From: Vitis vinifera
Taxonomy: Eukaryota; Streptophyta; Magnoliopsida; Vitales; Vitaceae
Assembly (NCBI RefSeq): GCF_030704535.1
Contig: NC_081807.1
Coordinates: forward strand, 4,443,001-4,507,000
Length of the DNA: 64,000 bases
Direction of reading: 5' to 3'
Made by a program: the position numbers and the translations under genes. Positions 17,645 to 59,829 of this stretch are shown here, in pieces. Each line of letters begins with the position of its first letter. The first letter of the stretch is position 1. The notes under the pieces are model-generated. The model was not told the origin of the DNA and did not search any database. It was given only the letters and a program-made list of their open reading frames with translations.

Positions 17645-17854
17645 TGTTGGAAAGTCAATCTTCCTAAATCTTCCATATTAAGAATAGATGATCTGTATAT
17701 GTTAGTTTTCCTATTGTAATTCTTGACTTATAGCTGGATAGTTTAGAATATGGTAAGCTGATGTCTGACTTGTAGAAAAAGATCTCAAACCTCCTTGTAT
17801 AAATACACACTTCAACATCAATAATATTAATTCAGCCAATTCTTCTTCTTTTCA
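17645..17854 (+). repeat. 3' LTR of the copia element
   Basis: A 210-bp copy of the 5' LTR with about six substitutions and no length change. It is preceded by a polypurine tract and followed by the TTGCC target duplication. Confidence 0.92.
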
Positions 17855-18438
17855 TTGCCAGGTGCCAACATTTCTCCTTCATCACGACCAAGGCAGGCCT
17901 GTCCCCATTTTGTATCCATTGCCCGTAGAGCTCTTTGATGAAAAGCTTGACTTCTGAGTCCCGGACATGGTTGAGTAACTCAAGCTGGCGGTTTAAGAGG
18001 AGCTCAACCGAGACCAGCTTCCTTACCTCATGCCAGTATGGCCCGTAATGAGAGAAGCCAAACATGGCATGGTCATAGCCCATGAGCTTTCCTGCGAAGG
18101 ATCTGGGTCGAGTGTCAAATGCTTTGTCCATGGTAGTGAAACATTCTTTTGCTGGGTCCTAGCTGCTAACCAAAAAAGTTTTGCGCAGGCCAATATGAAA
18201 GCAAAAGATTGGTCCATACTTATCTGCCATGGCTCCAAATGATTGATGTTAGGGCTTGCCTGCTCATAGAAGATGAAGGTGTCCGATTAAAGGCCATGCC
18301 TTGGATGGTTCTGGTGCCCTTTTGCCTTTGTTCTTGTTCCCTTCGGCTTTAATCAACCACAAACAGAAGGCCAAAAACGATGATCCCTCGAAACTGAAGC
18401 CATGACTCAATAGAAATGAAAATGTTTTAGGGAGAAGA

Positions 18439-18914
18439 TGTTAAGATATGGACTCACACATATTTAACAATGTTATATGACTAAGCTATTCCCCTTTTGA
18501 TATTTATTTTGTATCAGTTTTACATAGTATGGGTCACCTTATGTGTAGAGTCCATTGCCATCACGAGCCTTAGATGATGGGCCTAAGACTCGTGAGGCCT
18601 AATAGCCAAAGGGTATGGTCCTAAGGCAGGAGGGTATAAAACCAAAGGCTAAGTGTCTGTTCAATCGAATCACATAATTTGAAATAAGAACAGACTTGTT
18701 TTCTCTCCCACTCCCATCGTCAGAGAGAATCCAGAAGGAGGTGATGCCCTCCACAGCCTTAGAAGATCCATACCTTGTTCATTCAACACTCAAAATGGAA
18801 TCAGGTTAGTTCAGTATGTTCCTTTCTATAGAAATGTTTGACATAATTTCTTCATATGATTCAACATGCAATTTCTGTCTAATAATTGGATACAAGCAAA
18901 ATGGAGTTTCAACA
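18439..18914. mobile_element. Solo LTR, 476 bp (copy 1)
   Basis: A TG...CA segment beginning TGTTAAGATATGG and ending GTTTCAACA. GAAGA lies on the left (18434-18438) and a one-base variant, TAAGA, on the right. The paralogue at 47855-48330 has GAAGA on both sides, and the type B copy at 25289-26972 shows the empty site GGGGGAAGAATC near 27000. It contains a TATA-like GGGTATAAAACC. No internal coding part remains, as expected after LTR-LTR recombination. Confidence 0.75.
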
Positions 18915-20849
18915 TAAGAATCACTTCCCACTACCATATATATATCTCTAATGTTCTGCCTATACTAGGAAAAGGATTCCAAGATCCTTAGAAAAGAAAA
19001 AGAAAAAAAAAATTTCTTTTCTGTAAATTCAGCTCTGTTCTTTTCCTTTCTGTTCTTCAGCTAACTGATTTTGAATTTTGAAGAACCAACCCTGAAAAAG
19101 GATGATCACCTTCTTGGTAATGGGTCTGTTGTTTATTCATGGACGGCTGCATTTAAATTTAAATATGCTTGAATGAGTGGGTTTGGTGCCTAAATAAAAC
19201 CATGGAATCTTCTGTTTTGTCTATAGTTCTAATGCGTTCCAGCACTAAGTAACAAAAGTGCTCCTGTTTATTTAGACAATAGCATGAGAGTAGGGCCTAG
19301 TAACTACTGTGTTTAAAACGTTAACGGCTGGGTAAGGATTCTTTAAAGTTAGAGTACTTCTTGTTCTAGCTTAAAAAAATATTTTTGACCAAAAAAAAAA
19401 AAATAAAACTAGATAAAATTTAGACAAGGGTTTTAAAAAGTTAAAAAATCACCTGTAATTCTTTGGACATGTTTATAGTGTTTTTAGAAAGTATTTTTAA
19501 TATTTTTAACATTTAAAATTTTTTATCTTTCAAGTATTAAAGATATTAGAAATACTTTCTATAATTACTTTCAAACACTCTTAAAACAATAGTGAAAATG
19601 CGCTTGAAAGTATTTATATTCAAAATTTCTTTAATAATAATGTTTTCTTATAAAATATTATTTTTCAGAAAATCATCTCAAGTGTTTTTCTAAAAAATGA
19701 TTTTTCAAAATCTGAATAGTATTTCTTAAATTCTGTTAAACATTCAATGTTTTTTTTAAAAAACATCTTTTTAGGGTAAAAACACTTCTTAGAATCACTG
19801 CAAAGATAACTCTTAATAAATGATTCTCTGAAAAAAAAACTATTAGAGAAAATGCTTTCACAAAAATCATGTTGACGCATTTTTAGAATTTTGATTAGTA
19901 TTTCCTAAATTCTATTAAACATTCCATGTTTTTTTTAAACTCTTTTTTACTGTAAAAGCACTTTCTAGGATTACTGTCAAAATAACTCTTAATAAATGAT
20001 TATCTGAAAAAGACTATTAGAGAAAATACTTTCACAAAAATCATGTTTAGTAAAAACATTGACAAACACATTTTTAAAATTCGTTTGATAGTAATTTTAA
20101 AATGTATTTTTAATATTTTTAATATTTAAAATTTTTTATCAAAAAAAATATTTTTAAGTTCTAAAAAGATTATAAACGCTTTTTGAAACCTCTATCAAAC
20201 AATTTCTTAAATCATGTCACAAATGATGAGTTTTAAAGGCCACACTCATTCCATTCACTCACCTATTATTCTTGAACACTTTAAATTCAACATTTCTATT
20301 TTTTTTTTTAAAAAGCTTAAGTTATGTTTACAAATTGTTATTAAGAATAATTATTTTATTTTTGAGAATTAAAAAAACATAAAAACGTATTTAATTAATT
20401 TTTAGAAATGGTTGAAAATAAAGCATTGGAGATGAAACTTCATTTAAAAAAAAATATTTGAAAATTAAAAAAAGAAAAAAACATGTTAAAAACTTTCTAA
20501 AATTTCAAACATATTTTTATTTTAGAAAATATGATAAAACAATTTTTGAAAATAGTTTAAAAATATATATATATTTTTAAGAATTATTTTTAAAAACCTT
20601 CCCAAAATAGACCCAAGACTCCTAATTTTAACATGTTCCAGTTAAATTACAAACACAAGGTACCTAGAAAGTATCCTGATTAAGAAAGCTTGAGTAGATA
20701 TGCAAGGACGGCAAGTGATGTAACATCCTAAGATGTGAGGCTTTTCATCGAGGTTTATTTAGGCAGATATGCATCCCGAGTGACCTCCAGTGGAGTAGAC
20801 CCTTCCTGGGCTAACCAGGGGATTTTGTTGCACACATTAGGATACTACT
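18915..20849. other. Intergenic AT-rich DNA, duplicated at 48331-50245
   Basis: No gene is visible. From about 19440 to 20600 it is AT-rich and contains diverged repeats around TCTTAATAAATGATT (two copies about 180 bp apart near 19810 and 19990). The same family recurs at 36360-36500 and 49200-49480. It looks like old MITE-type debris. The whole stretch is repeated near-identically in the second segmental copy. Confidence 0.6.
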
Positions 20850-22763
20850 TTAGTGGTATAGCTCGGAGGGTAGCCTTGGGACTAGGGTGACCTCCAGCGG
20901 AGTTGCTTTAGGCATAGCGAGCCCAACACCTTCAGTCATATCCAGGGGTGAATCTGCAACCACTCCCAATTCAAAACCATGAAGTAATCTGGCTAGTGTC
21001 AGCTGCAGGATCTCCAGAGCAAGTGAGATTCCTGGGCACATCCTTCTGCCTGACCCAAATGGTAGAAGTTCAAAATGTTGACCCCTAACGTCCAAACCCA
21101 CATGCTTTGTCAGGAACCTCTCAGGTTGGAACTCCAAAGGATCCGACCAAATTGTGGGATCGCGGTGTAACTTCCAGAGGTTAACCAGAAGGCGAGTCCC
21201 AGCTTGGATGTGGAAGCCTGCAATAGTGCAGTCCTCCATGGCCTCATGTGGCAGTGCAAGCGGCCCAGCAGGGTATAGTCGTAAGGTCTCCTTGATAATG
21301 GCTTGCAAGTAGACTAGCTTCTTTATATCTGATTCGTACACTTGCTGATTCCTTCCCACATGGAAGTCCAACTCTTCTTGTGCCTTTTTTAGTGCACGAG
21401 GGTTGTTCATTAGCAGAGAGAGGGCCCAGGTGAGTGTGATCGCTATTGTATCATTGCCCGCCAACATGACAGTCTGCATCAACATATTACACCCATGTTG
21501 AACTTGTGATTAAAGAAAAAAGTCCATACATCATTTGTGAAATAGTATGTCTAGCGTGTCGGCAGAAGAATCATGACTGGGGAATCCGGGTAAAAAAAAA
21601 TTATCCCAGTTCCTGTTATCCCTGCCTAATTTATGAATTCTGTCTGCTGTTTCCTTAGGGAATGGTCTCGGCAATTTTTGTCAAAGAAAGAAACAGAGTT
21701 ACTTCAATAGTCCTGAAATACTGTATAGCAGAAGGAAAAAATAGATCATGATGGAGTAATACGAGTATTATCAAGGTATTGATGAAGTTGCAGATGCTCA
21801 TGAGGATGGTGGTGTTATGAAGTAGTAGAAACATACCAAGCAAGTGGCTTTGATGACAGTATCATGGTCATGGTCATGAGCAGATAACTGAGCATCATCT
21901 ATAACAGACAGCATGGCATGAATGAAGTCTTGCTCAGCCTCATTGATGCTTCCGGAAAGCCTCTTCTGACGATGCTCCTCCACCCATCTTCCAAGAACCT
22001 GATCCAACTGCCTAGCTGTTCCCTTCATTTTTGCTGTATATCCCCTCACTGTGTCTAACCATCCAAGGAAGGGTACTGCATCAGAAACCATAAATTGCCC
22101 CATTAGATTCATGAAATCACCTAGGGCTTGGCACCATCTTGACTCGCCATTTTCACACCGTTTCCCAGCAACTGTTCTCATCGTCAAATTTGCTACCAGG
22201 TGCTCAAACTTTTTCTTCATGTCCACCAAAACAGGGCTGCCTCCATTTTCTACCCATTGCCCATAGAGCTCTTGGATGAAAAACTTGACTTCTGAGTCCC
22301 GGACATGCTTGAGCATCTCGTGCTGGCGGTTGGAGAGGAGATTAACCATGGCTAGCCTCCGCACATCACGCCAGTATGGACCGTGACGTTCAAACGCAAA
22401 CATGGCATGGTCATAGCCCATGAGCTTTACTGCTAAGGATCTTGGTCGAGTGGCGAGTGCCTTGTCCTTGGTAGTGTAACATTCTTTTGCTACTTCCGAG
22501 CTACTAACCACCAGAGCAGTTCGAAGGCCAAGACGAATGGAGAAGATTGGTCCATACTCATCAGCCATGGCTCCGAATGTCCTATGTATTTGCTTATCTG
22601 CTCCTAGAAGATGAAGGTGACCCATTACAGGCCATGCCCCGGAGGGCTCTGGTGGGCTTCTGCCTTTGTTCTTGTTACCTTTGGCATTAACCAACCACAG
22701 ACAGATAATTGCAAAAAGAATGCCGAAAACTGTGACATCTTGAAGCTGAAGAGAGAATCCCAT
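20850..22763 (-). CDS. Cytochrome P450, CYP82 family (type C gene, complete)
   Basis: Two exons, 22763-21837 and 21473-20850, are joined at a phase-0 intron (KATCL then TVMLAGND) and give 516 aa. The start chosen is the conserved MGFSLQLQD; a Met six codons upstream is less likely because the paralogues all begin at MGF. Features: an N-terminal membrane anchor, the hinge PPEPSGAWPVMGHLHLL, the I-helix AGNDT (314-318), ETLR in the K-helix (about 371-374), PERF (426-429), and the haem loop FGSGRRMCPG with Cys 455. It is about ten residues shorter than type A, partly because the segment after VAGKR lacks the YFG stretch. It is expected to be an ER-bound monooxygenase of specialised metabolism; the substrate is unknown. 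It lies in the duplicated block and is nearly identical to the gene at 50246-52161. Confidence 0.9.
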
Positions 22764-24589
22764 TAGAAGATGGAGATACAAAAATCTAGTTCTTCTCCGT
22801 TTCCTTTCTTGTCAATGAAGGATTACCATCCTCCTCCTTTCCTTTTTTAGTTCATTGCCTTTTTAACTTTTCATTTTGTCGTTGACGTTGCTGACAAGCG
22901 TGGTCCCGGGCTGACAGCCTTTTCCGCAAGTGCCATGGCCCATGGGTTGGTAGATTCGCATTTTACCCACGTTTCCCATTTTGCCCGATCTTAAGGTAGA
23001 TTCGCACTGAGGTACCTTTTTTGGAAGTCTGATTGAGGATAAGGATGAAAGTATCATAATAACAAATATATTGATAATTTTATTTTATGAATATATTTTG
23101 ATAGATATTTTAATATAAAATATAAAATATTTGATAAACATAAAATTGATTAAAGTGATTTTTTTCAAAAATAAAAATATTAAAAGTATAATAGATATTT
23201 TAAAATTATTTTATTAAATTTTTTTATACATAATATAATTTATCATATTTGATAATTATATTATATATAAGAATAAATAAATATATATTTTATAAGTGTA
23301 TATTTATTATTAAATTATATTGAATATTATTGTGATATTTGATTATTAAAAAATATATTTAATATTAAAATTAAATTTATAATCCATTTTATTTAATTGT
23401 ATTAAATAATATAAAATAAATAATGATATATATATATATATATGATTTTTAATATTTAATTAATATATTAATGGAAGATGTCTCAGTGGTTGGTGAACAT
23501 TTTGGCTAGGGTTGGATTCCCCTCAGTAGCAGTAGAAAATTTGAATTTTTTTGAAGTTTGACCAATCAAAATATTGGTGAAAAATCAATAAATTATCGAA
23601 ATATCGAGGTGCCAATATTTCTTCCCTATATTTCGTGTCGAGATCCACCTATACACGATTTTTAACGATATATTGTCAAAATATCATGATATTTTAATAC
23701 TGGTTAAGGTCAGGTTTTGAGGCAGTCTCTTGATGATCCAATTTTTAGCCGCTCAAGAGAAAATGAGTTAGTGGAAAGTTCAGTTCGGGTGCTTTCAGCC
23801 CAAGTTGTGCCTCCTCTTTACCTACCACACAATACATAGACTTACAAGCTCATCTCCAATATGATTTGATCGATGTTACGTAGTGTTTCAAGTTCTCTTT
23901 ACTTATTTATCTCTGAAAGTCTAATATAAGTATGCCAGACCTACGAGGAATCCTTAGGGAGCCGGTCTACTCACTTGGTCACTTATATTTTTCTTGATAG
24001 GTATCGTCATGTTGTTATTTCTGGTACTAACACAGGTTCAGTGGACTAAAAGTACCAGTTCCAGGCATAAAAAGGAACCATATGTAGGCACAATCGCCTG
24101 ATGAAGGAAGATATTAGAGCATTCTCTCATGCACACCTCACTCTGCATGGAGGACGATGACTAGTAATCTCGTGCACAACCACACGACAAACCAGCAATG
24201 TAAACTTGATTCAGTATCACTTCCCATATCACTTCTCGCTAAATAGAAGGTGGGAGAGTTTGTCACAACATCAACAAATTTAGCTCCTCTTTTTCTTCTC
24301 TATGTTTTTGTTTAGCTAATTGATTTTCTGAGGTCTGCAAACCAAGAACTGTTCTACCTTCCTGATTAGCTCTAGAGTTGATGGGGGAGAAAATGTCGAT
24401 TTCTATGAAGATTAAAGTATAATCAAACAACAAACAAGAAGAAAAAGAAGAAGATGCACTTTACGAGTATCAGATATGAATGCAATGTAAAAACATATAA
24501 TTCCAATTTGAAGAAGCAAAAAACTTTCAGATCATCAAAGCTTATTGCTTAAATTTAAAAAAAAAAAGGAAAAAAAATCTGTCAGCCAT
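22764..24589. other. Upstream flank of the type C gene, duplicated at 52162-54165
   Basis: No gene is visible. About 22764-23040 is promoter-proximal sequence. From 23040 to 23480 the DNA is extremely AT-rich, with a (TA)n run near 23428-23446. From 23700 to 24570 it is less biased and matches 53340-54165 closely. The short frames here are not convincing. Confidence 0.6.
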
Positions 24590-27669: not shown

Positions 27670-28330
27670 TTTAATTTAAAATTTAATTAAAAATTATTAA
27701 ATTACAATTTATTATTGAAATTAAAAAAAATATACTTAAATAATAAATTATTTATATTTAAACTTAAGAATCTAGTATTACTTCAACAAACATAAATTAA
27801 TAAATAGAAGATATTATAAATAAATATTTTATTTATTAATAAATTAATAATATTAAAATAATAAATTTATATAACATATAAATAATATATAAAATTGTAT
27901 CATTTATTAATTTAAGATATTTAATTTGTTTTTTTTAAGACATTAATTTATTTGTATTATGAAAAATTTATCTTTATCGAAATAATAACATACTTTTAAG
28001 CAGTAGTTGCTAACTAAGATTTCAATTATAATTTGTTTTTACTTTCAAATTTAATTAAAAACTATTAAATTACAATTTATTATTAAAATTAAAAATATAT
28101 ACTTTAATAATAAATTATTTATATTTAAACTTAAGAATATAGTATTACTTCAACAAATATAAATTGATAAATAGAAGATATTATAAATGAATATTTTATT
28201 TATTAATAAATTAATAATATTAAAATAATAAACTTATATAACATATAAATAATATATAAAATTGTATAATTTATTAATTTAAGATATTTAATTTGTTGTT
28301 TTTTAAGATATTAATTTATTTGTATTATGA
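27670..28330. repeat. Tandem duplication of an AT-rich ~367-bp segment
   Basis: The motif AACTTAAGAATMTAGTATT occurs at 27761 and 28128, and the sequence around each matches over about 300 bp. A single stray copy of the neighbouring 38-bp unit lies between them near 28005. Together with the minisatellite this looks like the interior of a mobile element. Confidence 0.75.
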
Positions 28331-28491
28331 CAAATTCCACATTTGTCATATATAGATTTTTTGACAAAATTAGCTAATGAAATTAATTAGAAGAAGTCTA
28401 CTACAAAATGTAATTTTTAGTAATTTAATCAAAGTCATAAAAAATACCCAGTAAACATTATTATAGTGGGAAAAAAAAAACATATATAATC

Positions 28492-29073
28492 TCACATGTC
28501 TCCACAAGGAGAAAACCTATGTGTAACTGGTACTCTCTTTCTTGGACACTCTTCTCTAACTATAGCAGGTACTACATGTGACACATGAAGAACATCTGTC
28601 TGTGATGGGGCTGGAGCTGGAAATAGAGGTGGTGGTGGAGGTAGCAATCTAGGTTGATGTAGGCCTTGCCTACCCCTTGGAATGGCTGACAGTAAATCTA
28701 ACTGAGTAGATGTGTCAATCTCCACTAATGGTGGGTTTGAAGAACTAGGGGGTTGTAATGGAGGTAGGTCTAAAGAGGTAGGGGGTTGTACTGATGGTGG
28801 GTCTGAAGAAGTAGAGGGTTGTGTTGATGGTGGGTCTAAAGAAGTAGGGGCCTGAACTGAAGGTAAGTCTAAAGAAATAGAGGGTTGTACTGATGGTGGG
28901 TTTAAAGAGGTAGAGGGTTGCACTGATGGTAGGTCTGAAAAAGTAGGGTGTTGCACTAATGGTAGGTCTAAAGAGATGGGTGACTGTACTAATCGTGAGA
29001 ATAAAAATGTATGTGGGGGTTCTAGGAATGGTACATGGTATATATCTAAATAGTCAATGAGAATATCATTCAT
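28492..29073 (-). CDS. Proline-rich repetitive ORF, probably part of a transposon-associated gene
   Basis: An open frame of 193 codons from MNDILID to GDM. Residues about 30-125 are tandem 12-residue units of the type SLDLPSVQPSTS (36 bp each at the DNA level), followed by a short acidic linker, a polyproline stretch and a basic tail (RKRVPVTHR). I do not recognise a fold. The layout recalls the C-terminal tails of plant-mobile-domain (phosphatase-7-long-form-like) genes carried by plant transposons, but that is from memory. It sits in mobile DNA, just left of the large LTR-like element at 29217. It may be a last exon whose 5' part is missing or displaced. Confidence 0.4.
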   Translation of the reverse strand: MNDILIDYLDIYHVPFLEPPHTFLFSRLVQSPISLDLPLVQHPTFSDLPSVQPSTSLNPPSVQPSISLDLPSVQAPTSLDPPSTQPSTSSDPPSVQPPTSLDLPPLQPPSSSNPPLVEIDTSTQLDLLSAIPRGRQGLHQPRLLPPPPPLFPAPAPSQTDVLHVSHVVPAIVREECPRKRVPVTHRFSPCGDM

Positions 29074-30571
29074 CTTTGATTCTAGTCTGCTTGCTCATTA
29101 GAAAGTTGTTGTTTGTTTAAAAATAGGGAGGAAGAAAAAAATATTTTTTTGATGAAATTTACTCGCACTAATATTTACCCATTATTTTTTTTAGGCTATT
29201 TCCTCCAACACCCAGGTGTAGACCCTCAATTTTGTCCTTTTAGCACATGACTTTAAGTTCGTTTTCAGTGCTTCAAAATAGTTCCTTGGTGGTCCATTAC
29301 TACTCGTACAACTTACCTTTTTCTGAGTCACCTCGGGGACTTTGGTTAGGGGATTATCTTACCCCTTATTGTGACCCTTGGCAGCCCTAACTTAGACTTA
29401 GGCTTTTCTTGCTTTTTTTGGGATAGCTTTTAGATACACTTGACCCATTAGGCACCACCCTAGGCCCACTTAGATTCACCTAGGCTCATTCAGGCACATC
29501 TAGGCCCATTTAGGTTCACTAGATCCACTTAGGTATCTTAGCCCTCTCATGTCACCGTTGCGGTAATTCCTACATGACTTACATAATTTGCATGATTTGC
29601 ATTTTTTTAACACTTGTATGTACTTGATTTCCTATTCATTTATTTATCTACTTATTTTATTAACATTTAGTTAGTTATTTGTTTTATTTATTTATTTTAT
29701 AGAATATTGCATGAGATTGATGTCATTAATTGCGTAAACTGATGTCTTAATTTGTTTGTGTGTAGCTATGATAGATATATTGTTTTTGATTGCATATATT
29801 TTTTTATTAGTTTTAATTCTCAATTTCATAACCTCTACTGCTTTTAATTCTTATTTTATTTTGGCATGAGATTTGAATGCACACAGTGGAGAAGATCTTT
29901 GACGTACACGGCTGCATATAGAAAGTGGGCACATCACGGCTGAGGCACATCCGGGAGCATATGGAAAGAAGATTAAAGAGAATCTGATTACTTACCAAAT
30001 GAGAGAGGGGCTGCATCCTTGGAAAATCTCCAAGTAAGCTGCACATATGTAGACTTCCCATATCCACGCGTATAACAAAAAAAGGAAGTAAAATATTCTA
30101 CAAGAGTGGGCTGCCATATAAAAAAAAGTGGGGAGAAAAAAAGGCATGGGAGGATTTCGGAAGGAAGGAGGAAGAAGGAGTGACCGGGCAAAAGAGGATT
30201 TTTATCTGGGGAGTTGTCTTTAGAGGTGAGAGGAAAGCCGGAAGCCCAGCGATTGCAGCCAAGACTGCCCAAAATTTAAAATCCATTGGGTTTGGAGGAG
30301 AGGCATAGAGAAGAGGGGACTTTCAGCATGCACTGAGAACAGAGTGGAATCAGAAAAGAGAAGCAATCTTTGCTTCTTCAGAAAAGTTCTAAGCCCAAGA
30401 ATTGACATGCATTTGACTCTAAAGATCAAAGCTTTAACAAGAGAAGATTCAATTGTTCATTGATTCAGAAACAGAGGGTTAGGGTTTTGATTGTTTTGTG
30501 GTTCTGCAGATTGGGTGAAATTGTCCATTTAAAAAGAAAAAGAATCTTGGGCTTTTGAGGCTGGTGTAAAA

Positions 30572-32689
30572 ATGATGTCAAGATCGTATACCAATCTTTT
30601 AGATTTAGCTACTGGGAATTTTCCGGCAATCGGTCGAGAACGGAAGCGGCTTCCGAGGGTAATGACGGTTCCGGGCAATGTGTATGAACTTGATGATGAT
30701 CAGGCTAATAGTGTGTCGTCTGATAACCCCTCTTCAGTTGCTCAAGATCGGTTGATTATAGTGGCAAACCAGTTGCCTGTGAAAGCTAACCGAAGAGCAG
30801 ATGATAGAGGCTGGGTTTTTAGTTGGAATGAAGACTCATTGCTTCTGCAACTTAAGGAGGGTTTGCCAGAAGACATGGAAGTTCTGTATGTTGGGTCATT
30901 GAGGGTTGATGTTGACTTGACGGAACAAGAGGAAGTATCCCAGATTCTGTTGGAGACATTCAAATGTGTCCCTACTTTTCTGCCTCATGATGTTTTAGAG
31001 AAATTCTATCATGGATTCTGCAAGAAGTTGTTATGGCCGCTTTTCCATTACATGTTGCCATTTTCAGCTGATCATGGAGGTCGGTTTGATCGGTCTATGT
31101 GGGAAGCATATGTGTGGGCAAATAAGTTATTCTCACAAAAGGTTATTGAGGCGATAAACCCAGATGATGATTATGTTTGGATTCATGATTACCATTTGAT
31201 GGTATTGCCAACTTTCTTGAGGAGGCACTTTAACCAGTTAAGAATGGGGTTTTTTCTTCATAGTCCATTTCCATCTTCAGAGATCTACAGGACTCTTCCT
31301 GTCAGAGAAGAAATTCTTAAGGCTTTGCTTAACTCAGACCTTATTGGTTTCCACACATTTGATTATGCTCGGCATTTCCTTTCTTGTTGCAGTCGGATGT
31401 TGGGTTTGGAGTATCAGTCAAAGAGGGGCTATATAGGGTTGGAATATTATGGAAGGACTGTGGGGATCAAGATTATGCCTGTTGGGATTCATATGGGCCG
31501 GATTGCTTCAGTGATGAAGCTTGCAGATAAGGAGAAGAAGGTAGGAGAGCTCAAGCAGCAGTTTGAAGGGAAAACGGTGTTGCTTGGTGTTAATGATATG
31601 GACATTTTTAAAGGTATTAATTTGAAGCTATTGGCAATGGAACAGTTGCTTCAGCAACACTCAAAGTGGCAAGGAAAGACCGTGTTGGTTCAGATTGCAA
31701 ACCCTGCAAGAGGTAAAGGAGCAGATTTAGAGGAAATACAAGCTGAAATAAGGGAAAGCTGCAGAAGAATCAATGAAGAATTTGGGGAGCCCGGGTATGA
31801 ACCAATAGTTTTTGTTGACAGACCAGTTTCAATCAGTGAGAGAATTGCCTATTACAGTATTGCTGAGTGTGTTGTTGTCACGGCTGTCAGGGATGGGATG
31901 AACCTTACGCCGTATGAATACATTGTTTGTAGACAAGGAACAGATGATTCTGAATCAAGTTCGGATTTGAGTGGGCCCAAGAAGAGCATGCTAGTGCTAT
32001 CAGAATTTATTGGATGCTCTCCTTCACTTAGTGGGGCTATCTGTGTGAATCCATGGAATGTCGAAGCAACTGCTGAGGCAATGAATGAAGCTATTTCAAT
32101 GTCTCAATCAGAGCAACTCCTGCGACATGAGAAGCATTTTCGGTATGTTAGCACCCATGATGTGGCTTATTGGTCACGAAGCTTCTTGCAAGATATGGAG
32201 AGAACCTGCTCAGAGCTCTTTAGGAGAAGATGCTGGGGAATTGGTTTAAGTTTTGGGTTCAGAGTTGTAGCACTTGATCCTAATTTTAGAAAGCTTTCAA
32301 TAGAGGCTATTGTTTCGGCCTACTGTAGGGCTAAGAGTAGGGCCATACTGTTGGACTATGATGGCACTGTGATGCCCCAAAATTCCATCAACAAGGCTCC
32401 AAGTCAGGAGGTTATTTCAATTCTAAACACACTTTGCTGGGACAAGAAAAATATAGTTTTTATTGTCAGTGGAAGAGGAAGGGATAACTTAAGCCAGTGG
32501 TTTTCCCCCTGCAGGAAGCTTGGACTTGCAGCAGAAGCAATCTTAATGGAAGGAATAAATGAAGAGAATGAACGAGAAAATATTGATAATTTGGCAGAGA
32601 GTGAGGCAATTGATATGGAGCAGAATAGGAAGAATCAACCAAAGTCATCTGGAATGACTGATCAGCCCCCGCAAGCATCAACAGAATAA
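30572..32689 (+). CDS. Chimeric ORF: class II trehalose-6-phosphate synthase fused to a BEACH-protein piece
   Basis: An intronless open frame of 705 codons. Residues 1-655 are a class II TPS (AtTPS5-11 type): the glycosyltransferase-20 domain from about residue 58 (DRLIIVANQLPVK) to about 545, then the start of the phosphatase-like domain with LDYDGTVM (about 592-599) and FIVSGRGRDNL. The normal continuation HGYF after GLAAE is absent. At 32536/32537 the frame passes into about 50 residues (AILMEGINEENEREN onwards) whose downstream DNA resembles a BEACH-domain protein. Family members are usually about 850-860 aa, so roughly the last 200 residues of TPS are missing. Plant class II proteins are mostly regulatory. 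Whether this copy is expressed is unknown; its long open frame suggests it is recent or under constraint. Confidence 0.7.
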   Translation: MMSRSYTNLLDLATGNFPAIGRERKRLPRVMTVPGNVYELDDDQANSVSSDNPSSVAQDRLIIVANQLPVKANRRADDRGWVFSWNEDSLLLQLKEGLPEDMEVLYVGSLRVDVDLTEQEEVSQILLETFKCVPTFLPHDVLEKFYHGFCKKLLWPLFHYMLPFSADHGGRFDRSMWEAYVWANKLFSQKVIEAINPDDDYVWIHDYHLMVLPTFLRRHFNQLRMGFFLHSPFPSSEIYRTLPVREEILKALLNSDLIGFHTFDYARHFLSCCSRMLGLEYQSKRGYIGLEYYGRTVGIKIMPVGIHMGRIASVMKLADKEKKVGELKQQFEGKTVLLGVNDMDIFKGINLKLLAMEQLLQQHSKWQGKTVLVQIANPARGKGADLEEIQAEIRESCRRINEEFGEPGYEPIVFVDRPVSISERIAYYSIAECVVVTAVRDGMNLTPYEYIVCRQGTDDSESSSDLSGPKKSMLVLSEFIGCSPSLSGAICVNPWNVEATAEAMNEAISMSQSEQLLRHEKHFRYVSTHDVAYWSRSFLQDMERTCSELFRRRCWGIGLSFGFRVVALDPNFRKLSIEAIVSAYCRAKSRAILLDYDGTVMPQNSINKAPSQEVISILNTLCWDKKNIVFIVSGRGRDNLSQWFSPCRKLGLAAEAILMEGINEENERENIDNLAESEAIDMEQNRKNQPKSSGMTDQPPQASTE

Positions 32690-33075
32690 ATAGATACTCC
32701 AATTGCTAATAACCAAGATGTGGTCCAAGGTCCATCAGCAGTCGCCCCTAGATATGTTCTAAGTGAACTTGATGAAAGAATTGTTCTTAAGCTTCATTCA
32801 TGAATGGTCCGACCACTAAGGGTTGTACGAAGAATCTCTCAAATAACAACAAGACGAATCAATTTCATAGTTGATAATACTGAGTGCAATGGGGATGGGT
32901 TGGATTGCAGTTCAGAAATTAGAGATCAAAGAAAATGATAGAAGCTGGCTGATGTCTTCCCTTCACCAAATATTTAGCAGAAGATATTTCCTGAGAAGAA
33001 GTGCACTAAAATTATTTATGATTGACCGGTCAAACTTCTTCTTTGATTTTAGAGGCACTTGTCAGAGAGATGGGG
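32537..33075 (+). pseudogene. Captured fragment of a BEACH-domain protein (C2/SPIRRIG-like)
   Basis: Sequence typical of the PH-BEACH junction of plant BEACH-domain protein C2 is visible: RRINFIVDN near 32860 and [26 protein letters not shown] and FFFDF between about 32955 and 33050. These proteins are large cytosolic factors in vesicle traffic and mRNA-decay bodies. The first 50 codons are open and fused to the TPS frame; the rest is decayed. No intron is seen across about 540 bp, which suggests a processed source. Confidence 0.7.
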
Positions 33076-33249
33076 ATGTATTTGCCCACTACAGATAATT
33101 TAATCCATGCAAGAGATGGACTGGCAGATTGGAGAGCTTTTTGAGGTCACTCATTGGTTGCTTGGCATTAATGAAGGAGAAAAGAGCTGCTTGGAAGACT
33201 GTACAGTCGCTGTTTATCCTTGAATCTAGAGAGCAGAAATGTCATCATA

Positions 33250-34115
33250 ATCTGTAGGTAGAAAAGATGAAATCAGAGATGCTCAACCTATAATTCCAAC
33301 TTCAGAGTATGAGCACCAATTCAAACCGTGGTAAAACTTCTCCCAGGAATGAAAATCTAGAAGAGGCAGAATCTGGACAAGTGGATGGAAATTCTGAGAG
33401 GGGTGATCTGGGAAGAGTAATGAAGAGAAAGCTGACATGGATTTAGAGGCACCAGGGGAAGATGTCTTGAGATCTGGAAATTTTGACTTCACTAGTGATC
33501 ATGTGCTCAATACAGAATTTGTGACACAACTAAAGGATGACATGCAGGCTGCAGATTTAAGAAACAACGGCACCAGAACTCTAATAGCAGTAATATTCAC
33601 AATAACCTTGCACCTGTAAATGGCTTACCTCCCAATGATACTTCTGAGATGGAGATATTGGTGGGTGACTCATCTATGGACGGGAAACTCATCAATGATC
33701 AATCCAAAACTCAATTGCCTTAGCAAGATTCTTCATCCATCCGGAAAACCCAAGCCAACCTTTACCATAATGTTGAGGATGCGATTGAAGAGTGGAGAGA
33801 AGGAGCCGGAGTTGTCTTCTGATCTGCAGGAAGATAACACAGAGTCTCTGGATAATGTGGACGATGAGAATGCAGATTAATATGGATATTTTTCTGAGTT
33901 TGAGAAAGGAACTGCCTAGGCATTGGGACCTGCAACATTTGACCAGATTGACAAGAACATCACTCAAAATGAACCTGATGTTGAAGGAGTTATGGCACAA
34001 AAAGAACACCTCACTAAGGAGAATGATAAACAAAATTCTGAAACAGAGAAAAGAATAAAGGAGCAGATACAAGTTTCAAATTCAGAGGTTTCACTTAAAG
34101 GCTCATCCCCATAAA
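33250..34115 (+). pseudogene. Captured fragment, probably of midasin (MDN1)
   Basis: Acidic, Asp/Glu/Asn-rich frames with MDLEAPGEDVLRSGNFDF (about 33437), a segment resembling the 'VxDAIEEWRER' pattern (near 33780) and QALGPATFDQ-like sequence (near 33920) match what I remember of the acidic C-terminal region of plant midasin, the AAA+ ATPase that removes factors from pre-60S ribosomes. The identification is from memory and moderate. The piece is decayed and lies in the same orientation as the TPS piece. Confidence 0.45.
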
Positions 34116-34149
34116 CCCTTTCTCCCCCCTCAGTTTTCATGTTGGTTGC

Positions 34150-34420
34150 AGTTTCAAAGAGTATTGCTACTTTTTTTTACATATTCAGCAATTAGGTGTA
34201 AGATCATGATTCGAACAGCAGTTTCAAATGATGATGAAGACAAGAAAGCTCTACAGAAATCCCACAAAACAGTACATGGTGCTCTCTATGTTATTTGGAG
34301 AAGAGAAAGGGGACCGAGGTTCTTTAAGGAATTGCAAGCTTAGATCCTGAAAGTCGTACTAAGCTCAGCATTGCTTTTGATGATCAAGGAGAAAATTGTA
34401 GCAGGCACTTGAGTACTAAT
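34150..34420 (+). pseudogene. Captured fragment of a peroxisomal adenine nucleotide carrier (PNC1/2-like)
   Basis: YSAIRCKIMIRTA, then SHKTVHGALYVIWRRE (about 34175-34310) and sequence like LSSALLLMIKEKI near 34370 match the last repeat of the plant peroxisomal ATP carrier, a mitochondrial-carrier-family membrane protein. Only this C-terminal part is present, decayed, in the same orientation as the preceding pieces. Confidence 0.65.
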
Positions 34421-34439
34421 ACTTGCAGTCGCCCCAAAT

Positions 34440-35797
34440 TAAGCAAGAGCTGGAATTGTCATTTCCTGTCAGTTCCCACTGTTGCCCATGATTAAATGAA
34501 GCCCTCAAGCTCTCTTCCAGCAATATCTTTGACATCAAATGCCCACCAGAATCTCCATTCAATAACTGCTTCAATTTGAGCTCATGGATCCAAGGAAAAC
34601 ATGGATAGGGAAAGTTGGTTGCGCCAAGAAGCCCTAGAAAGTGCCAAGAGAGAGAAATGGCAGAATGTATTTGGGGATTCAACACCAGCAAGATAGTCTC
34701 AAATCTCATTCCTAGGCTCCAGTCCATTATGGCTACCTTGCTACACACACTTTCCCCTTTTCTTGCTTCTTTGCTTGGGAATTTACTGTTTTAAATTGAA
34801 TTTTTGAACCATTGTTCAACTAAACATTCCCGGCTTTGAAAAATTCATCTTAGGTCCTTTCTAGGTATAAAATCCATATTCTAACACACTCTTGCTGCCA
34901 TTTTCCTTCTAGCATGCATTTTCACTATTTTATTTGATTTTCAAATGATTTTCTTGATTTTTCTCAATTTTCTTAAGCATGAACAAACTCCATAATTCCA
35001 AGTCATGGAATTCATGGAATCAACTCATGCGAAATTAATTAGGGCTTTGGTGGGGGCCCGACATTCATGATACCTTCTTCAATATTGTTTGTTTGATATG
35101 TTGATTTTTTATTCTTCTTGATGATATACATGAATTCGTTTCGTATTTATTGTTGAGATGCTTTTGATTCCCATAGAGGAGTACTAGCTTGCTATCCAGG
35201 TATGCTCTCTTCTCATCTATTTTTTTTTAGAACTCTATATACTTGTATGTCATTGATGACCCTATCCATATTTGACGTGATTCTTGGATGTCTTGATATA
35301 TGCCTGATTTGCTTGAATAAAACAAATGTTGTATGATGTATCTCCAAATTAATCTCTTATGTTTTATGATAGCGTTTAGGAAGCTGTCCAGGTACGCATT
35401 TTTAACTCTCCTTAATTGTGATTTGATCTTGTTTGATATGCTATGTTTTTGGAATCACCTAGCCTACTTAAGTATCCATGATCAACCATTTAATTGCTAC
35501 GCTTCCCTTAACTTAGTCAGTAGAGACCTCTTTAGGGCTTAGAGGGGTGCTACCTCCTAGAGGTACCTTCCCAATAGGTAACCTGATCCCCGGACTTAGA
35601 CTCGGGTTTTTCAAAGACATGCTTTTTCCAAAAATTATGGAGTCACATTTTTAGGGTTTTTCTTTCTTGTTTTATTTTCCCTTTAAAATAAAAATAAAAT
35701 AAGTGGCGACTCCAACTTTTCTAAAATTAATTTTTCACAAATAAAAAGCGAGTCTCGCCGATCGAGTGGGGGCGCACGTGAAAGATGCGGGTCCACA
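34440..35797. other. Right arm of the LTR-like element
   Basis: No gene is recognised. A 110-codon minus-strand frame (34416-34748) overlaps the carrier fragment edge and is not convincing. From about 34800 the DNA is T-rich. It then contains GGGGGCCCGACA (about 35050) and the GC-richer terminal block with GTGGCGACTCC, typical of long plant gypsy LTR ends. Confidence 0.5.
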
Positions 35798-35802
35798 CCA
35801 GG

Positions 35803-36905
35803 CATTTATTTTAGCTTGTGGTAAAGCAAACCTCGGGTGATATGGACTCATCCTTCTACGAAGGATCTGTCCATTTTATCTTACATAACCTCTATATTAG
35901 AATCACGAATCTGTATGCTAAAATAGTCGTGAAGGACGTAAACAAAAGAGAAAAACAAAAGCAATGGGAAACAATAAATAAATTTTCTGAAAACCGAGAT
36001 TTTGAGATGGGGAAAAAAATGGGAAAGTGCCAAAAACTTTACATAAAACAAACCAAAAAGAAGATTGGGACCAACCTCAACCTTGATACTTTATAGCTCC
36101 AACAATGTCTCTTTCACAGTGGCCCATTGGTGGGGCTAGGGTTTTGAAGAAAAAAATTACACAGGGAATAGAGAATGGGATGGAAAGCTGAGAAAGTAAA
36201 CAAAAATAGTATAAAAAAAGATGGTTTTTATGGTTATGTGAATTGATGGGGACTAGTTTGAACAATAGTTTGGGAAGAAGCCCACTTTTAATATTAAGTT
36301 TCTAAAGAAGCCCATTTTGGCCCATTATGGTTATGTGATGTTTTTTTAAAAACTTTTTTTTTATGCTAAAAGCATTTCCTAGGACGGTTGCCAAGATGAT
36401 TCTTAATAAATGATTCACTGAAAAAGACTATTAGAAAAAATACTTTTACAAAAACCACTTTTAGTAAAAACATTGCCAAATGTATTTTTGGAATCTGATA
36501 GTTATATTAGAAAGTGTTCCATGAGATTGTATGGCATATATGTGAACATGTAAAACCTCTTGTCCGCTTAAGGGAAATTAATTTAGAGCATTTGATTCCA
36601 GTCTTCTACCAATAATATAGTAATTGGATTCTAATTTTTTTAAAGTTGTCTAAGTTGTGGTGGTGGGTTGGATGCTCAGTTAATATAAGATATTATAATA
36701 TTGAGTTCAATAGGTCATTCATGATGATCCTATGCTTGCTGCCAAATGTTGTATTCATCTTGTGGGAAAGAAAATGCTAAGTGTAGGTCGATCATGAGGG
36801 CCTGCAGGCTGCAACTTTGTACAGTTAACTATTTCCCAATTAATCCATATGATTTTTCTATGAAAATCAGGATCAATTGTTTTATCATGTGTTAATAAGT
36901 CAAGA
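35803..36905. other. Noncoding mobile/AT-rich DNA
   Basis: No convincing gene. 35820-36096 holds an unremarkable 92-codon frame. 36340-36500 belongs to the same AT-rich repeat family as 19740-20080. 36650-36905 matches 44605-44840, so this stretch is part of another local duplication. Confidence 0.5.
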
Positions 36906-36910
36906 GTAGG

Positions 36911-37642
36911 TGTAGGGACCCCTCCCCACACGTGGCACACATCTCATAATAACACGTGGCACACATTCTCATCTGGATCAGCCTCATCCGGATTTCCCCA
37001 AGAGTACACGTGGCGCGCTTCTCCTATCCGGACTCTCTCAAGGAAAGGCACACGACACTCACAAACATAACATCCGGACGACTGCCACAGCACATCCGGA
37101 CGACCGACATACACTATCCGGGTGTGTTTGTCCGGATCATTGACTGAAGTAAGCAAGTCTTACACGTTATCACAACAGCCTGCCATGACCCACATTCCGC
37201 CATCTGCAGGGTGAAAGGACAAGAATGAAGTGACGGCAAGTCACTTCCTACGATCACTTCCCACTATTTCAAACAATTGCAGCAACTACCACGATATCTG
37301 TCAGCCGCCCGTAGGGTGATGATGACCCTGCCACCACCTAGTGTCATCATGACAACACAAAATATCTCCCTACGATTAAAGAGAGAAACAAAGCTTCTGA
37401 TACTATATATATGAACCTTCACACAAAGAGGAAAGTAAGCTTGCTATACTTGGTAAAAGACCAACTGATTTATCTCTATTTCTCTAATCATGGCTGACAA
37501 AACCATCGGAGGGTGCGTCCGGACACCTCGTCCGGACGCCTTTTGCAGGTAGTACGATTGAATCAAGAATCTATATTGGTTGAGATCGTGCGTTCACCCA
37601 TTTGGCAACTACGTGGATCACCAAGGACGCGAGGCCTCAACA
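36911..37642. mobile_element. Solo LTR, 732 bp
   Basis: It begins TGTAGGGACCCCTCC and ends GGCCTCAACA, and is flanked by GTAGG on both sides (36906-36910 and 37643-37647). It contains repeated TCCGGAYG motifs, a candidate TATA (CTATATATATGAACC, about 37403-37417) and no coding sequence. It appears to be a complete LTR left by recombination. The homologous stretch near 44835-44845 lacks it. Confidence 0.8.
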
Positions 37643-38052: not shown

Positions 38053-38247
38053 ATGCAAAAAGAAATACTCATAGATGGAAATTTATTACTATCCAAGTGG
38101 ATGAAAATTGAGGAGAAGATGAGAAAGGAGAACACCCATTACACCGCGACAATTCAAAGTCAGTCACACCAACATAAATATACCCTAAACTAAAGCACTG
38201 GGCTAATTAGGGGACTCTCCGGCTCACATAAGAGTATTATTTGCTTT

Positions 38248-40148
38248 CTATGCTACTTCATAACTATAGAGCTCGAAAGGTAGCCTTGGAACAATTGTGA
38301 CCTCCAGTGGGGTTGCTTTGAGGGCAGTCAACCCAGGACTTTCAGTCATATCCACCCGTGAATCTACAACCGCTCCCAATTCAAAACCATGAAGCAGTCT
38401 GGCTAGCGTCAGATGCGTCAACTCCAGTGCAAATGAGATTCCTGGGCATACCCTTCTACCTGAACCAAAGGGTAGAAGTTCATAATTTCTACCCCTAACA
38501 TCCAAACCTGCATGCTTTGTCAGGAACCTCTCTGGTTGGAACTCCAAAGGGTTTAACCAGACTCTGGGGTCACGATGCAACTTCCAGAGATTAACCAAAA
38601 GGCGCGTCCCAGCTTGGATGTGAAAGCCAGCCACAATGCAATCTTCCATGGCCTCACGTGGCAGGGAAAGTGGCCTAGGACGGTACAGTCGTAATGTTTC
38701 CTTGACGATGGCTTGCAAGTAGACTAGGTTCTTTATATCTGATCCATCCACTTGGCGATGCTTTCCCACATGGATTTCCAGCTCTGCTTATGCTTTTTTT
38801 AGCGCATGATGGTTGTTCAATAGGAGAGAGAGGGCCCATGTAAGAGTGATAAATGTTGATCCATAGCCAGCTAATATGAGGTTCTGCAATCAACATATGA
38901 TGTCGACTTCAATATGTGATCAGGCAAAGTTTACTTATCAGTAGTGAAATATCATGTTTAGCAGAATGATAAAACAAACCGTGAATAAGGAATCTAAGTG
39001 AAATTTGATCACCCCGCCTGGTTTGTCATGATAAATACAGATGATAAAGCTATACCGGATTTGATGAATCCTTATAGAAATGTGAGGAGGGTTTAGGAAA
39101 TTGGGCGGAAAAAGTTGTAGAAATTATGATAGTAGATGGTGCTTTTTTTTTTTCTTTCTTTTCATTTCATGCTCAGGTTATGGAAGTAGCAGGGACATAC
39201 CAAGCAAGTGCCCTTAATGATGGTGTCAGGATCACGACGAGAGAATTGGCCATCATCTATGACAGAAAGCATGGCATGTATGAAGTCTTGCTCAGCCCCA
39301 TTGTCGTTCGCAGAAAGCCTATTCTGGCGATGGTCCTCCACCCAGCTTCCAAGCACATAATCCACCTCCTTAGCTACTCTCTTCATTTCAGCGGTAAACC
39401 CTTTCACCGTGTCCAACCAGCCGAGAAAATGGATGGCATCCGAGACCATGAACAGCCCCACTAGAATAATGAAATCCTCAAAGGCCTTTTTGCCCCGTTT
39501 TGGCTCATCACCACAGGCATGGGTCCCAAAATACCGTTTCCCAGCAATTGCTCTCACCACTACGTTCAGTGCCAAGTTCCCAAATCTTTCCTTCATCTCC
39601 ACTAAAGCGGGGCCGTCCTTGTTGCTTGCCCATTGCCCATAAAGCTCTTTTATTAAGATCTTGACTTCTGAGTCCTGGACATGCTTGTGCATCTCAAGCT
39701 GGCGGTTTGACAGCAGCTCAGCCATGGCTAGCTTCCGCACATCACGCCAGTATGGTCCACAAGAAGCAAAGACAAACGAGCCATGATCATAGCCCATAAG
39801 CTTTATTGCTAAGGGTCTTGGTCGAGTGGCGAATACCTTGTCATTTATAGTGTAACCTTCCTTCGCTACTTCCCAGCCACTAACCACCAATGCTTTTTTG
39901 AGGCCAAGATGAACGCAAAAGATGGGTCCATACTTATCAGCCATGTCTCCAAGTGTTCGATGTAGCAGCTTGTCTGCTTCTAGAAGATGAAGGTGACTGA
40001 TAAGAGGCCATCGCCCGGACGGCTCTGGTGGCCTTTCGCCTTTCTTCTTGTTCCCTTTGGCATTAAGTACTGTTGCCAACAACAGACAGATTGTAGACAG
40101 AAGAAGCCCAAAAACTATGATATCTTGAGGGCGAAGGGAGAATCCCAT
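38248..40148 (-). pseudogene. Cytochrome P450, CYP82 family (type A), one premature stop
   Basis: Exons 40148-39201 and 38883-38248 have the same lengths and splice sites as the complete gene at 188-2081. Two changes matter. A CAA-to-TAA change gives a stop at 38788-38790, in exon 2 before the K-helix, so the product would lack ExxR and the haem loop. The I-helix reads AGYGSTFITLTW instead of [12 protein letters not shown], losing the acidic residue and the first Thr of the oxygen-activating motif. Downstream of the stop the frame remains open through ETLRLY, PERF and [10 protein letters not shown] to the natural end. It is therefore a young pseudogene, or a null allele in this haplotype. Confidence 0.85.
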
Positions 40149-40242
40149 GACTGGATAGTACCAGAGTGAAAAGAAAGAGGGTCGGAGAGAGAAAAATGGT
40201 TTTCTATTCTGTTTTCACAGTTTTCTCTGTTCAGAACATGGA

Positions 40243-40250
40243 TATTTATA
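40243..40250 (-). promoter_or_regulatory. Candidate TATA box of the second type A gene
   Basis: TATAAATA on the minus strand, about 100 bases before the ATG at 40148, at the same relative place as in the paralogue. Confidence 0.4.
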
Positions 40251-40779
40251 CATACCCTGGTCACACTTTCTGTGAGTGCTTCTTATAACTAAGAATCACT
40301 TCTCCAAAAGGGCTCAAAACTACACACACTAGAACACTCACAGGTCGAATTCATGTTCCATACATGTGCCATCCTAATATGGAAACTATAGACAGTTGTC
40401 GATGATATAAAATGTGAAAGCTCCTTCGAAGTCTTATATATGATAGTTCTGAGTATGAAAAAACCCATCTCTTTGGCCAGTTGTTATGATGCATATTTGT
40501 TCATTGAAAATCACGCGGGAGTAAATCTAGCCCCATGAAAATGGGGTTGATTTAGCTATTAAGTTTGGCATGCTCTTTACCACACACCACACATTACATA
40601 GATAATATTGAGAAGCTTTGCCTTACCTAAGTGTAAGGTGGATGCCCGTTTGGACTGAATGGTTCAGAATTAAGGAGTAGACAGTGCCTCAACTAAGTGG
40701 GAAGGTTGTAGCACACATTTTTTCCCACTTTCTATGTTGGAGTAGATAGTGCCTGAACTAACCTGAAGACTTTGTTGCA

Positions 40780-47049: not shown

Positions 47050-47819
47050 ACCCAGCACCTGATCCATCTCCCTAGTTGTTCTCTTCATTTTTGTCGTATA
47101 TCCTCTCACAGTGTCTGACCAGCCAAGGAAGGGGATTTGCATCAAAAACCATAAATATCCCCGAAAGATATAACAAATCGCCAAGGGCCTTCCGGCACTG
47201 TCTTGATTCATAGTCGTTTGTAATGGTGCCAAAATGCTGTTTCCCAGCTACTACGCTCACCATTACATTTGTTGCCATGTGCCAACACTTCTCCTTCATC
47301 TCGACCAAAAGAGGCCTGTCCCCATTTTGTATCCATTGCCCATAGAGCTCTTTGATGAAAAGCTTAACTTCTGAGTCCCGGACATGGTTGAGTAACTCAA
47401 GCTGGAGGTTTGAGAGGAGCTCAACCGAGGCCAACTTCCTTACATCACGCCAGTATGGCCCGTAAGGAGAGAAACCAAACATGGCATGGTCATAGCCCAT
47501 GAGCTTTCATGCCAAGGATCTGGGTCGAGTGGCAAATGCTCTGTCCATGGTAGTGAAACATTCTTTTGCTGCGTCCCAGCTGCTAACCAAAAAAGTTTTG
47601 CGCGGGCCAATATGAAAGCAAAAGATTGGTCCATACTTATCTGCCATGCTCCAAATGCTTGATGTTGGGGCTTGCCTGCTCATAGAAGATGAAGGTGTCC
47701 GATTCAAGGCCATGCCCTGGATGGTTCTGGTGCCCTTTTGCCTTTGTTCTTGTTCCCTTCGGCTTTAATCAACCACAAACAGAAGGCCAAAAACGATGAT
47801 CCCTCGAAACTGAAGCCAT
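47050..47819 (-). pseudogene. CYP82-type P450 pseudogene (type B), exon 1 fragment
   Basis: Exon 1 only, from the ATG at 47819 to about the AKMKRTTREMDQVLG region, where a retroelement fragment begins. Recognisable words include [30 protein letters not shown] and [12 protein letters not shown] follows RSLA near 47510, the membrane anchor is shortened as in the copy at 3514-18403, and later frames shift near 47640 and 47130. At about 47270 it has a single TTGCC with no insertion: the empty site of the copia element in its sister. No exon 2 remains. Confidence 0.85.
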
Positions 47820-47854
47820 GACTCAATAGAAAAGAAAATGTTTTAGGGGGAAGA

Positions 47855-48330
47855 TGTTAAGATATGGACTCACACATATTTAACAATGTTACATGACTAA
47901 GCTATTCGCCTTTTGATATTTATTTTGTATCAGTTTTCCATAGTATGGGCCACCTTATGTGTAGAGCCCATTGCCATCACGAGCCTTAGATGATGGGCCT
48001 AAGACTCGTGAGGCCCAATAGCCAAAGGGTATGGTCCTATGCAGGAGGGTATAAAATCAAAGGCTAAGTGTCTGTTCAATCGAATCACATAATTTGAAAT
48101 AAAAACAGACTTGTTTTCTCTCCCACTCCCATCGTCAGAGAGAATCCAGAAAGAGATGGTGCCCTCCACAGCCTTAGAAGATCCATACCTTGTTCATTCA
48201 ACACTCAAAATGGAATCAAGTTAGTTCAGTATGTTCCCTTTCTATAGAAATGTTTGGCATAATTTCTTCGTATGATTCAACATGCAATTCCTGTCTAATA
48301 ATTGGATACAAGAAAAATGGAGTTTCAACA
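47855..48330. mobile_element. Solo LTR, 476 bp (copy 2)
   Basis: The same LTR as 18439-18914, same length, with a perfect GAAGA duplication at 47850-47854 and 48331-48335. It was therefore in place before the segmental duplication. Confidence 0.8.
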
Positions 48331-48335
48331 GAAGA

Positions 48336-59811: not shown

Positions 59812-59829
59812 TGCTATCTTCCCCACAAT

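What the first reader, a model, noticed from the sequence alone, without database searches (positions are those of the whole stretch)
29217..35797. An LTR-like element enclosing parts of four different host genes
Seen: a segment with TGTAGACCC/GGGTCCACA ends and a 5-bp CCAGG duplication encloses, in one orientation and without obvious introns, pieces resembling class II TPS, a BEACH-domain protein, midasin and a peroxisomal ATP carrier. Known: plant LTR elements, Helitrons and Pack-MULEs can capture host sequence. Four unrelated genes in a row inside one LTR is unusual. Inference: serial capture or template switching during reverse transcription built a chimeric retrocopy.
Basis: partly seen in the sequence, partly recalled or inferred. 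Interest (0 to 1): 0.85.

Follow-up and report, generated by a model that had tools for sequence, protein, structure and literature searches.

The report
Chimeric host-gene pieces between LTR-like arms
A plant DNA segment carries a row of broken-off pieces of unrelated genes between the two ends of what looks like a retrotransposon repeat, an unusual but not unprecedented kind of accidental gene capture.

Summary
The segment 29217-35797 has TGTAGACCC...GGGTCCACA ends, an exact 5-bp CCAGG repeat, and same-strand host-gene pieces. Tools establish two: a TPS piece (30572-32536), open for 655 codons, and a BEACH-type PH domain (about 32780-33056) in the same frame, two stops further on. The carrier is suggestive (Mito_carr E 0.0021 on a frame-joined reading, below Pfam's cut-off). 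Midasin rests on recall; no tool found it.

The arms are not a pair of LTRs: no real similarity to each other, and no convincing primer site, gag or pol. A nearly intact Copia in the same window has LTR pair, primer site and gag-pol. The end signature alone is at chance level (15 in the window, mean 11.9 in 15 controls), though this instance is the least likely by composition (0 of 60 controls as rare; measure chosen afterwards).

Decay is uneven: 0 disablements in 655 TPS codons, 12 in 537 codons of the other pieces on a hand-picked reading. That argues against one capture followed by neutral decay.

The host genome is not held and my searches found no plant relatives, so copies, parents and intron loss are untested. 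Best reading: stepwise, probably RNA-level capture inside one LTR unit, of the kind of maize Bs1 and soybean GmaRetroS15.

The parts
29212..29216 (.). CCAGG, left copy of the putative 5-bp target-site duplication
   Evidence: signature at chance level by itself, rare by composition
29217..29879 (+). left LTR-like arm (begins TGTAGACCC; T-rich; 20-bp tandem repeats at 29459-29534)
   Evidence: edge near 29880 placed by the change in base composition, so approximate
29880..30571 (+). purine-rich leader of unknown origin, perhaps TPS 5' untranslated sequence and/or LTR sequence; holds the only TATAWA motif on the + strand of 29217-30571 (30117)
   Evidence: no Pfam match in its three + frames; - frames not scanned
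30572..32536 (+). trehalose-6-phosphate synthase piece, 655 codons, no stop or frameshift, cut early in the phosphatase domain
   Evidence: Pfam Glyco_transf_20 E 6.6e-183; Trehalose_PPase profile 1-65 of 235; PDB TPS E 1.9e-110. 'Class II' and the exact 3' edge are by recall
32537..33059 (+). BEACH-protein piece with PH domain; its first part is in the TPS frame, with stops at 32687 and 32801 and one frame change near 32936
   Evidence: PH_BEACH E 3.1e-20; NBEA and LRBA. Tool support starts at about 32780; 32537-32779 is assigned to BEACH by recall only
33060..33317 (+). unassigned stretch
   Evidence: no Pfam match in six frames; CpG o/e 0.10
33318..34112 (+). broken acidic reading (3 stops, 3 frame changes), midasin-like by recall only
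   Evidence: no support or 24
34124..34440 (+). mitochondrial/peroxisomal carrier-like piece, 2 stops and 1 frame change
   Evidence: Mito_carr E 0.0021 on the joined reading, below the curated cut-off; no PDB match; 'peroxisomal ATP carrier' is by recall
34441..34720 (+). unassigned stretch, possibly another captured piece; 34577-34666 gives a weak Nbs1_C match
   Evidence: Nbs1_C E 0.044, 0.015 and 0.013, below the 25-bit cut-off, no PDB match; no Pfam match in the other frames tried; CpG o/e 0.07
34721..35797 (+). right LTR-like arm (T-rich; AATAAA at 35316, 35687, 35693, 35740; ends GGGTCCACA)
   Evidence: edge near 34720 approximate
35798..35802 (.). CCAGG, right copy of the putative target-site duplication

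Best explanation
The segment is one copy of an LTR-type unit: a left arm, a right arm with polyadenylation-type motifs, and a single 5-bp target duplication. Its middle was replaced by exon-type pieces of several host genes, captured as RNA in more than one step. The BEACH, acidic (midasin-like) and carrier-like pieces came first and have decayed. The TPS piece came last or has been kept by selection. The unit was probably integrated in trans by a relative's enzymes and now stands as a solo-LTR-like insertion. Shown: ends, 5-bp repeat, TPS and BEACH pieces on one strand, shared frame of TPS and the first part of the BEACH piece, uneven decay on the chosen reading, no recognisable LTR pair. Inferred: LTR identity of the arms, promoter and terminator roles, RNA route, order of capture, trans-mobilisation.
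For: Two gene pieces are secure and a third is suggestive, all on one strand. Domain matches are uninterrupted by intron-sized inserts (TPS residues 60-543; PH_BEACH profile 3-85 of 99; carrier profile 9-87 of 96). The ends and 5-bp repeat are the least likely of 15 such signatures by composition, 0 of 60 controls as rare. The right arm holds 4 AATAAA where base composition predicts 0.5, three of them in one AT-rich stretch. Base composition changes near 29880 and 34720. All 12 disablements fall outside TPS, in 537 of 1192 codons, P 7e-5 if uniform. Precedents: soybean GmaRetroS15 with exon-only pieces of three host genes (PMC4717578); maize Bs1 with three (PMC13317346).
Against: The arms are not alike. 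No convincing PBS, and no gag or pol, was found, while the Copia at 12794-17855 has LTR pair, PBS, TSD and gag-pol. The end signature alone is at chance level. No TATAWA motif lies in the left arm; the only one is in the leader at 30117. The T-richness test for introns has little power: its control, a presumed P450 intron, was not flagged. Midasin is unconfirmed. The disablement count rests on a hand-picked reading, about half of it (258 of 537 codons) in the unconfirmed acidic block. No other copy of the arms was found in the window (pieces of 60 bases or more) or by exact patterns in viral contigs. In B73 maize none of 425 intact LTR elements with gene fragments was found, under the conditions used, to hold more than one standard nuclear gene (PMC2774510).
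Confidence: 0.5

Rival explanations
1. A solo LTR (or two LTR fragments) into which gene pieces were later patched as filler DNA during double-strand-break repair; the RNA route is not needed because each piece could come from within single exons.
For: No LTR pair, convincing PBS or gag/pol. TPS class II genes mostly have only two coding introns (PMC3414516), so a 1965-bp intronless piece may be one exon. Unassigned stretches at 33060-33317 and 34441-34720.
Against: All recognised pieces are in one orientation, and TPS shares its frame with the first part of the BEACH piece, though that has a one in three chance of being accidental.
Confidence: 0.22
2. A DNA transposon (Helitron or Pack-MULE) carrying gene fragments that inserted into an LTR sequence.
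For: These elements capture many gene fragments; in maize 1194 captures by Helitrons against at least 189 by LTR elements (PMC2774510).
Against: No inverted repeats of 20 nt or more within the segment and no hairpin-CTRR-T end by a simple + strand scan, which printed no hit.
Confidence: 0.1
3. A former full-length non-autonomous LTR element with cargo in its internal region, whose inner LTR parts, PBS and PPT were lost by deletion.
For: TSD and TG..CA ends survive. In the passages I saw, captured genes lie between the LTRs (PMC3726574, PMC4717578, PMC5664825).
Against: Needs two deletions that left no overlap between the remaining halves of the two LTRs; no residual similarity between the arms beyond short words.
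Confidence: 0.15

Closest known systems
Maize Bs1 LTR retrotransposon (review PMC13317346, passages)
   Same: Pieces of several unrelated host genes (three) inside one LTR-type element, giving a chimeric reading frame
   Different: By recall, Bs1 has two LTRs with the cargo internal; here there is no LTR pair and the pieces are from other genes
Soybean TRIM GmaRetroS15 (PMC4717578, passages)
   Same: Exon-only pieces of three host genes in one LTR-type element with 5-bp TSD
   Different: These gene-carrying TRIMs are 1172-1449 bp with both LTRs, and most have two or more copies; here 6.6 kb, no LTR pair, copy number untestable
BARE-2 / Veju abnormal template switching (review PMC13317346, passages)
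   Same: Foreign sequence introduced into an LTR element, for BARE-2 in the LTR region itself
   Different: The introduced sequence is another retrotransposon (BARE-2) or unknown DNA (Veju), not host genes
LTR-mediated retroduplication of plant genes (PMC5664825, PMC3726574, passages)
   Same: Host genes carried in LTR elements; in pepper about 72% of the retroduplicated NLRs are in non-autonomous ones; two or three genes in single LTR elements are mentioned
   Different: The genes lie between directly repeated LTRs; here there is no such pair

Membership tests
LTR retrotransposon (full length) | two similar LTRs | tested here: not met
   nothing shared by the arms beyond a 22-nt T-rich repeat at 77-82% and words of 10-12 bases
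LTR retrotransposon (full length) | TG...CA ends with 4-6 bp target duplication | tested here: met
   chance level alone, rare by composition
LTR retrotransposon (full length) | primer-binding site | tested here: inconclusive
   ten recalled primer complements, + strand of 29001-36000; best were 10 of 12 (30666, inside TPS), 10 of 13 (35704) and 11 of 14 (29550); none convincing
LTR retrotransposon (full length) | polypurine tract before a 3' LTR | tested here: inconclusive
   six purine runs of 14 or more; one (30159-30180) is followed by TG, but what follows is unlike the left end
LTR retrotransposon (full length) | gag/pol genes (absent in non-autonomous elements) | tested here: not met
   one search lists three ORFs of 120 aa or more in the segment; none is gag/pol. 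The arms were not scanned in all frames
Solo LTR | single LTR with TSD and relatives of the same LTR in the genome | not testable with these tools
   host genome not held
Processed (RNA-derived) gene capture | parental introns precisely absent | not testable with these tools
   no plant genome or gene found
Pack-MULE | long terminal inverted repeats with 9-11 bp TSD | tested here: not met
   both inverted pairs of 20 nt or more in 28000-37000 lie at 28202-28320, outside the segment; only 10-12-base words; direct repeat here is 5 bp
Helitron | hairpin then CTRR at the 3' end, inserted between A and T | tested here: not met
   simple + strand scan (perfect GC-rich stems of 6-9) printed no hit
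LINE retrocopy | 3' poly(A) and longer TSD | tested here: inconclusive
   no long A-run seen near 34440-34760 by reading; cargo boundaries are uncertain and no TSD scan was made at them

The most novel reading that the evidence does not exclude
One LTR unit acted as a ready-made promoter and terminator cassette that collected four or more host transcripts in succession. The last capture left an intact 705-aa TPS-BEACH fusion frame that is expressed and under selection, a new chimeric gene assembled inside a single LTR.
Probability: 0.13. Interest if true: 0.7.

Novelty: new member of a known kind. Interest (0 to 1): 0.42.

Why it matters
Multi-gene capture by LTR elements is a proposed route to new chimeric genes. 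In the papers found by my searches documented cases are few: three genes in Bs1 and in GmaRetroS15, two or three genes in single elements mentioned in PMC5664825, and none with more than one among 425 maize elements in PMC2774510. A case with more pieces and graded decay would let the order and route of capture be read directly, and would test whether captures build up inside an LTR.

Tried and rejected
Genome copies: the host genome is not held. Plant relatives: none in viral contigs by TPS protein or by exact LTR patterns. In genome contigs 15 loci came back, all bacterial or archaeal by their titles, no help for plant introns. PDB search for the acidic block and the carrier gave no sensible match. 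Rfam: nothing at gathering threshold. tRNA: none. The T-richness scan flagged 3 of 120 windows within 29880-34719, two in the open TPS frame and one in the carrier-like piece; its control, a presumed P450 intron (21510-21797), was not flagged while one window outside it was, so I do not use the scan as evidence of intron loss. An unspliced acceptor at the start of the carrier piece (pyrimidine tract near 34115-34150) was considered and set aside because the same bases read as carrier-like protein; this is not settled. Papers on TPS give intron number but not position in the passages seen: two coding introns in most class II genes, but mostly three in lotus TPS genes (PMC5040708). LTR-end words in papers: none of the listed titles concerns a plant LTR (16 of 16, 2 of 2, 20 listed of 229). 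No paper holds three of the four terms midasin, BEACH domain, trehalose-phosphate synthase, retrotransposon. The first decay count used two wrong frames and was redone. A weak Nbs1_C match in 34577-34666 (E 0.044, then 0.015 and 0.013 on trimmed pieces) had no PDB support and is left as a lead.
Full report
What is there. The segment 29217-35797 begins TGTAGACCC, ends GGGTCCACA and is bordered by CCAGG on both sides. A blind scan for that kind of signature (5-bp repeat, TG..CA, at least 8 of 9 inverted end bases, 0.3-12 kb) gives 15 hits in the window against a mean of 11.9 in 15 first-order Markov controls, so the signature alone is chance level. Weighted by base composition this is the least likely of the 15, and 0 of 60 further controls held one as rare; the weighting was chosen afterwards. 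The right arm holds 4 AATAAA motifs where base composition predicts 0.5, three of them in one AT-rich stretch, and the left arm has 20-bp tandem repeats. No TATAWA motif lies in the left arm; the only one is in the leader at 30117, so the LTR part may reach further right than the composition change at 29880 suggests. I recognise the ends as typical of a plant LTR family from memory only.

Not two LTRs. The arms share nothing beyond a 22-nt T-rich repeat at 77-82% and words of 10-12 bases, and no BLAST piece of 60 bases or more. No convincing primer-binding site, no MULE-type inverted repeat and no Helitron end appeared, and none of the three ORFs of 120 aa or more in the segment is gag or pol. 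As a comparison from the same window, the Copia element at 12794-17855 has 211-bp LTRs 97% alike, TGGTATCAGAGC after the first, a purine tract before the second, TTGCC on both sides, and gag, integrase and reverse transcriptase domains in two frames. So the finding is at most a single LTR unit with cargo inside, or a heavily deleted element.

The pieces. TPS: 30572-32536, 655 codons with no stop, while the other five frames of the same span hold 26 to 61 stops. Glyco_transf_20 matches at E 6.6e-183, and the phosphatase domain stops at profile position 65 of 235; PDB best 1.9e-110. The frame runs on to 32689, into sequence that I assign to BEACH by recall, and it is the frame of the first half of the PH domain, after stops at 32687 and 32801. 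BEACH: PH_BEACH E 3.1e-20, profile 3-85 of 99, and neurobeachin and LRBA in the PDB; tool support starts at about 32780. Carrier: E 0.053, 0.14 and 0.0021 on three readings, all below the curated cut-off, and no carrier in the PDB search. Acidic block: an alternating broken reading that I take from memory for midasin; neither the PDB nor Pfam supports it. Unassigned: 29880-30571 (three + frames scanned), 33060-33317 (six frames) and 34441-34720, where 34577-34666 gives a weak Nbs1_C match that could be a further piece.

Decay. On a hand-picked reading path (TPS 655 codons; BEACH-like 174, acidic 258, carrier-like 105) the TPS piece has 0 disablements and the other 537 codons have 12 (7 stops, 5 frame changes). 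If disablements fell evenly the chance that all 12 miss TPS is 7e-5. The unassigned stretches and a few bases at frame changes were left out of this count, and the acidic block is itself unconfirmed. Either TPS was captured later or it has been kept intact by selection. A single capture followed by neutral decay does not fit.

Introns. Within the recognised domains no intron-sized insert interrupts the match. This is weak evidence: most class II TPS genes have two coding introns (PMC3414516, passages; also PMC8092105, PMC9466596 and PMC5710090, passages, each with exceptions; lotus genes mostly three, PMC5040708, passages). Their positions are not in the text I saw, and no parental gene is available. 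A composition scan flagged 3 of 120 windows but missed its own control intron.

Precedent. Three host genes in maize Bs1 and foreign sequence in the LTR of BARE-2 (review PMC13317346, passages). Exon-only pieces of three genes in soybean GmaRetroS15 (PMC4717578, passages). Two or three genes inside single LTR elements are mentioned in a study of six plant genomes (PMC5664825, passages). Against this, none of 425 maize LTR elements with gene fragments was found, under the conditions used, to hold more than one standard nuclear gene (PMC2774510, passages). V. [quoted passage not shown] the host is a guess from recall. Plant retrogenes are said to be mostly flanked by LTR elements in PMC4838847, which also reports an LTR-flanked retrocopy that keeps one intron and says that none had been reported for Arabidopsis before (passages).

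Verdict. A real and unusual chimeric cargo, with LTR identity and RNA route probable but untested. It belongs with known multi-gene captures by LTR elements unless genome tests show otherwise.

Noticed in passing
3921-10951: AT-rich (about 18% GC) 352-bp tandem array, 20 copies about 98-99% alike, next to the P450 cluster
   Followed up: no
12789-17859: Nearly intact Copia element (gag-pol split over two frames) inserted in a P450-like gene, with 211-bp LTRs 97% alike, Met-type primer site (named by recall) and TTGCC duplication
   Followed up: partly
17855-23473 and 47272-52889: Segmental duplication about 92% alike that carries P450 genes; 1-2493 and 38054-40535 are another pair at 93%
   Followed up: no
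28492-29094 (-): 200-aa proline-rich open frame with 33-bp (11-codon) repeats, no Pfam match, about 120 bp from the left CCAGG
   Followed up: no
33060-33317 and 34441-34720: Unassigned stretches inside the cargo with very low CpG (o/e 0.10 and 0.07), perhaps further captured pieces; a weak, sub-threshold Nbs1_C match at 34577-34666
   Followed up: partly
59431-59856 (-) and 60938-61357 (-): PetM (cytochrome b6f subunit 7) and B3-domain frames
   Followed up: no
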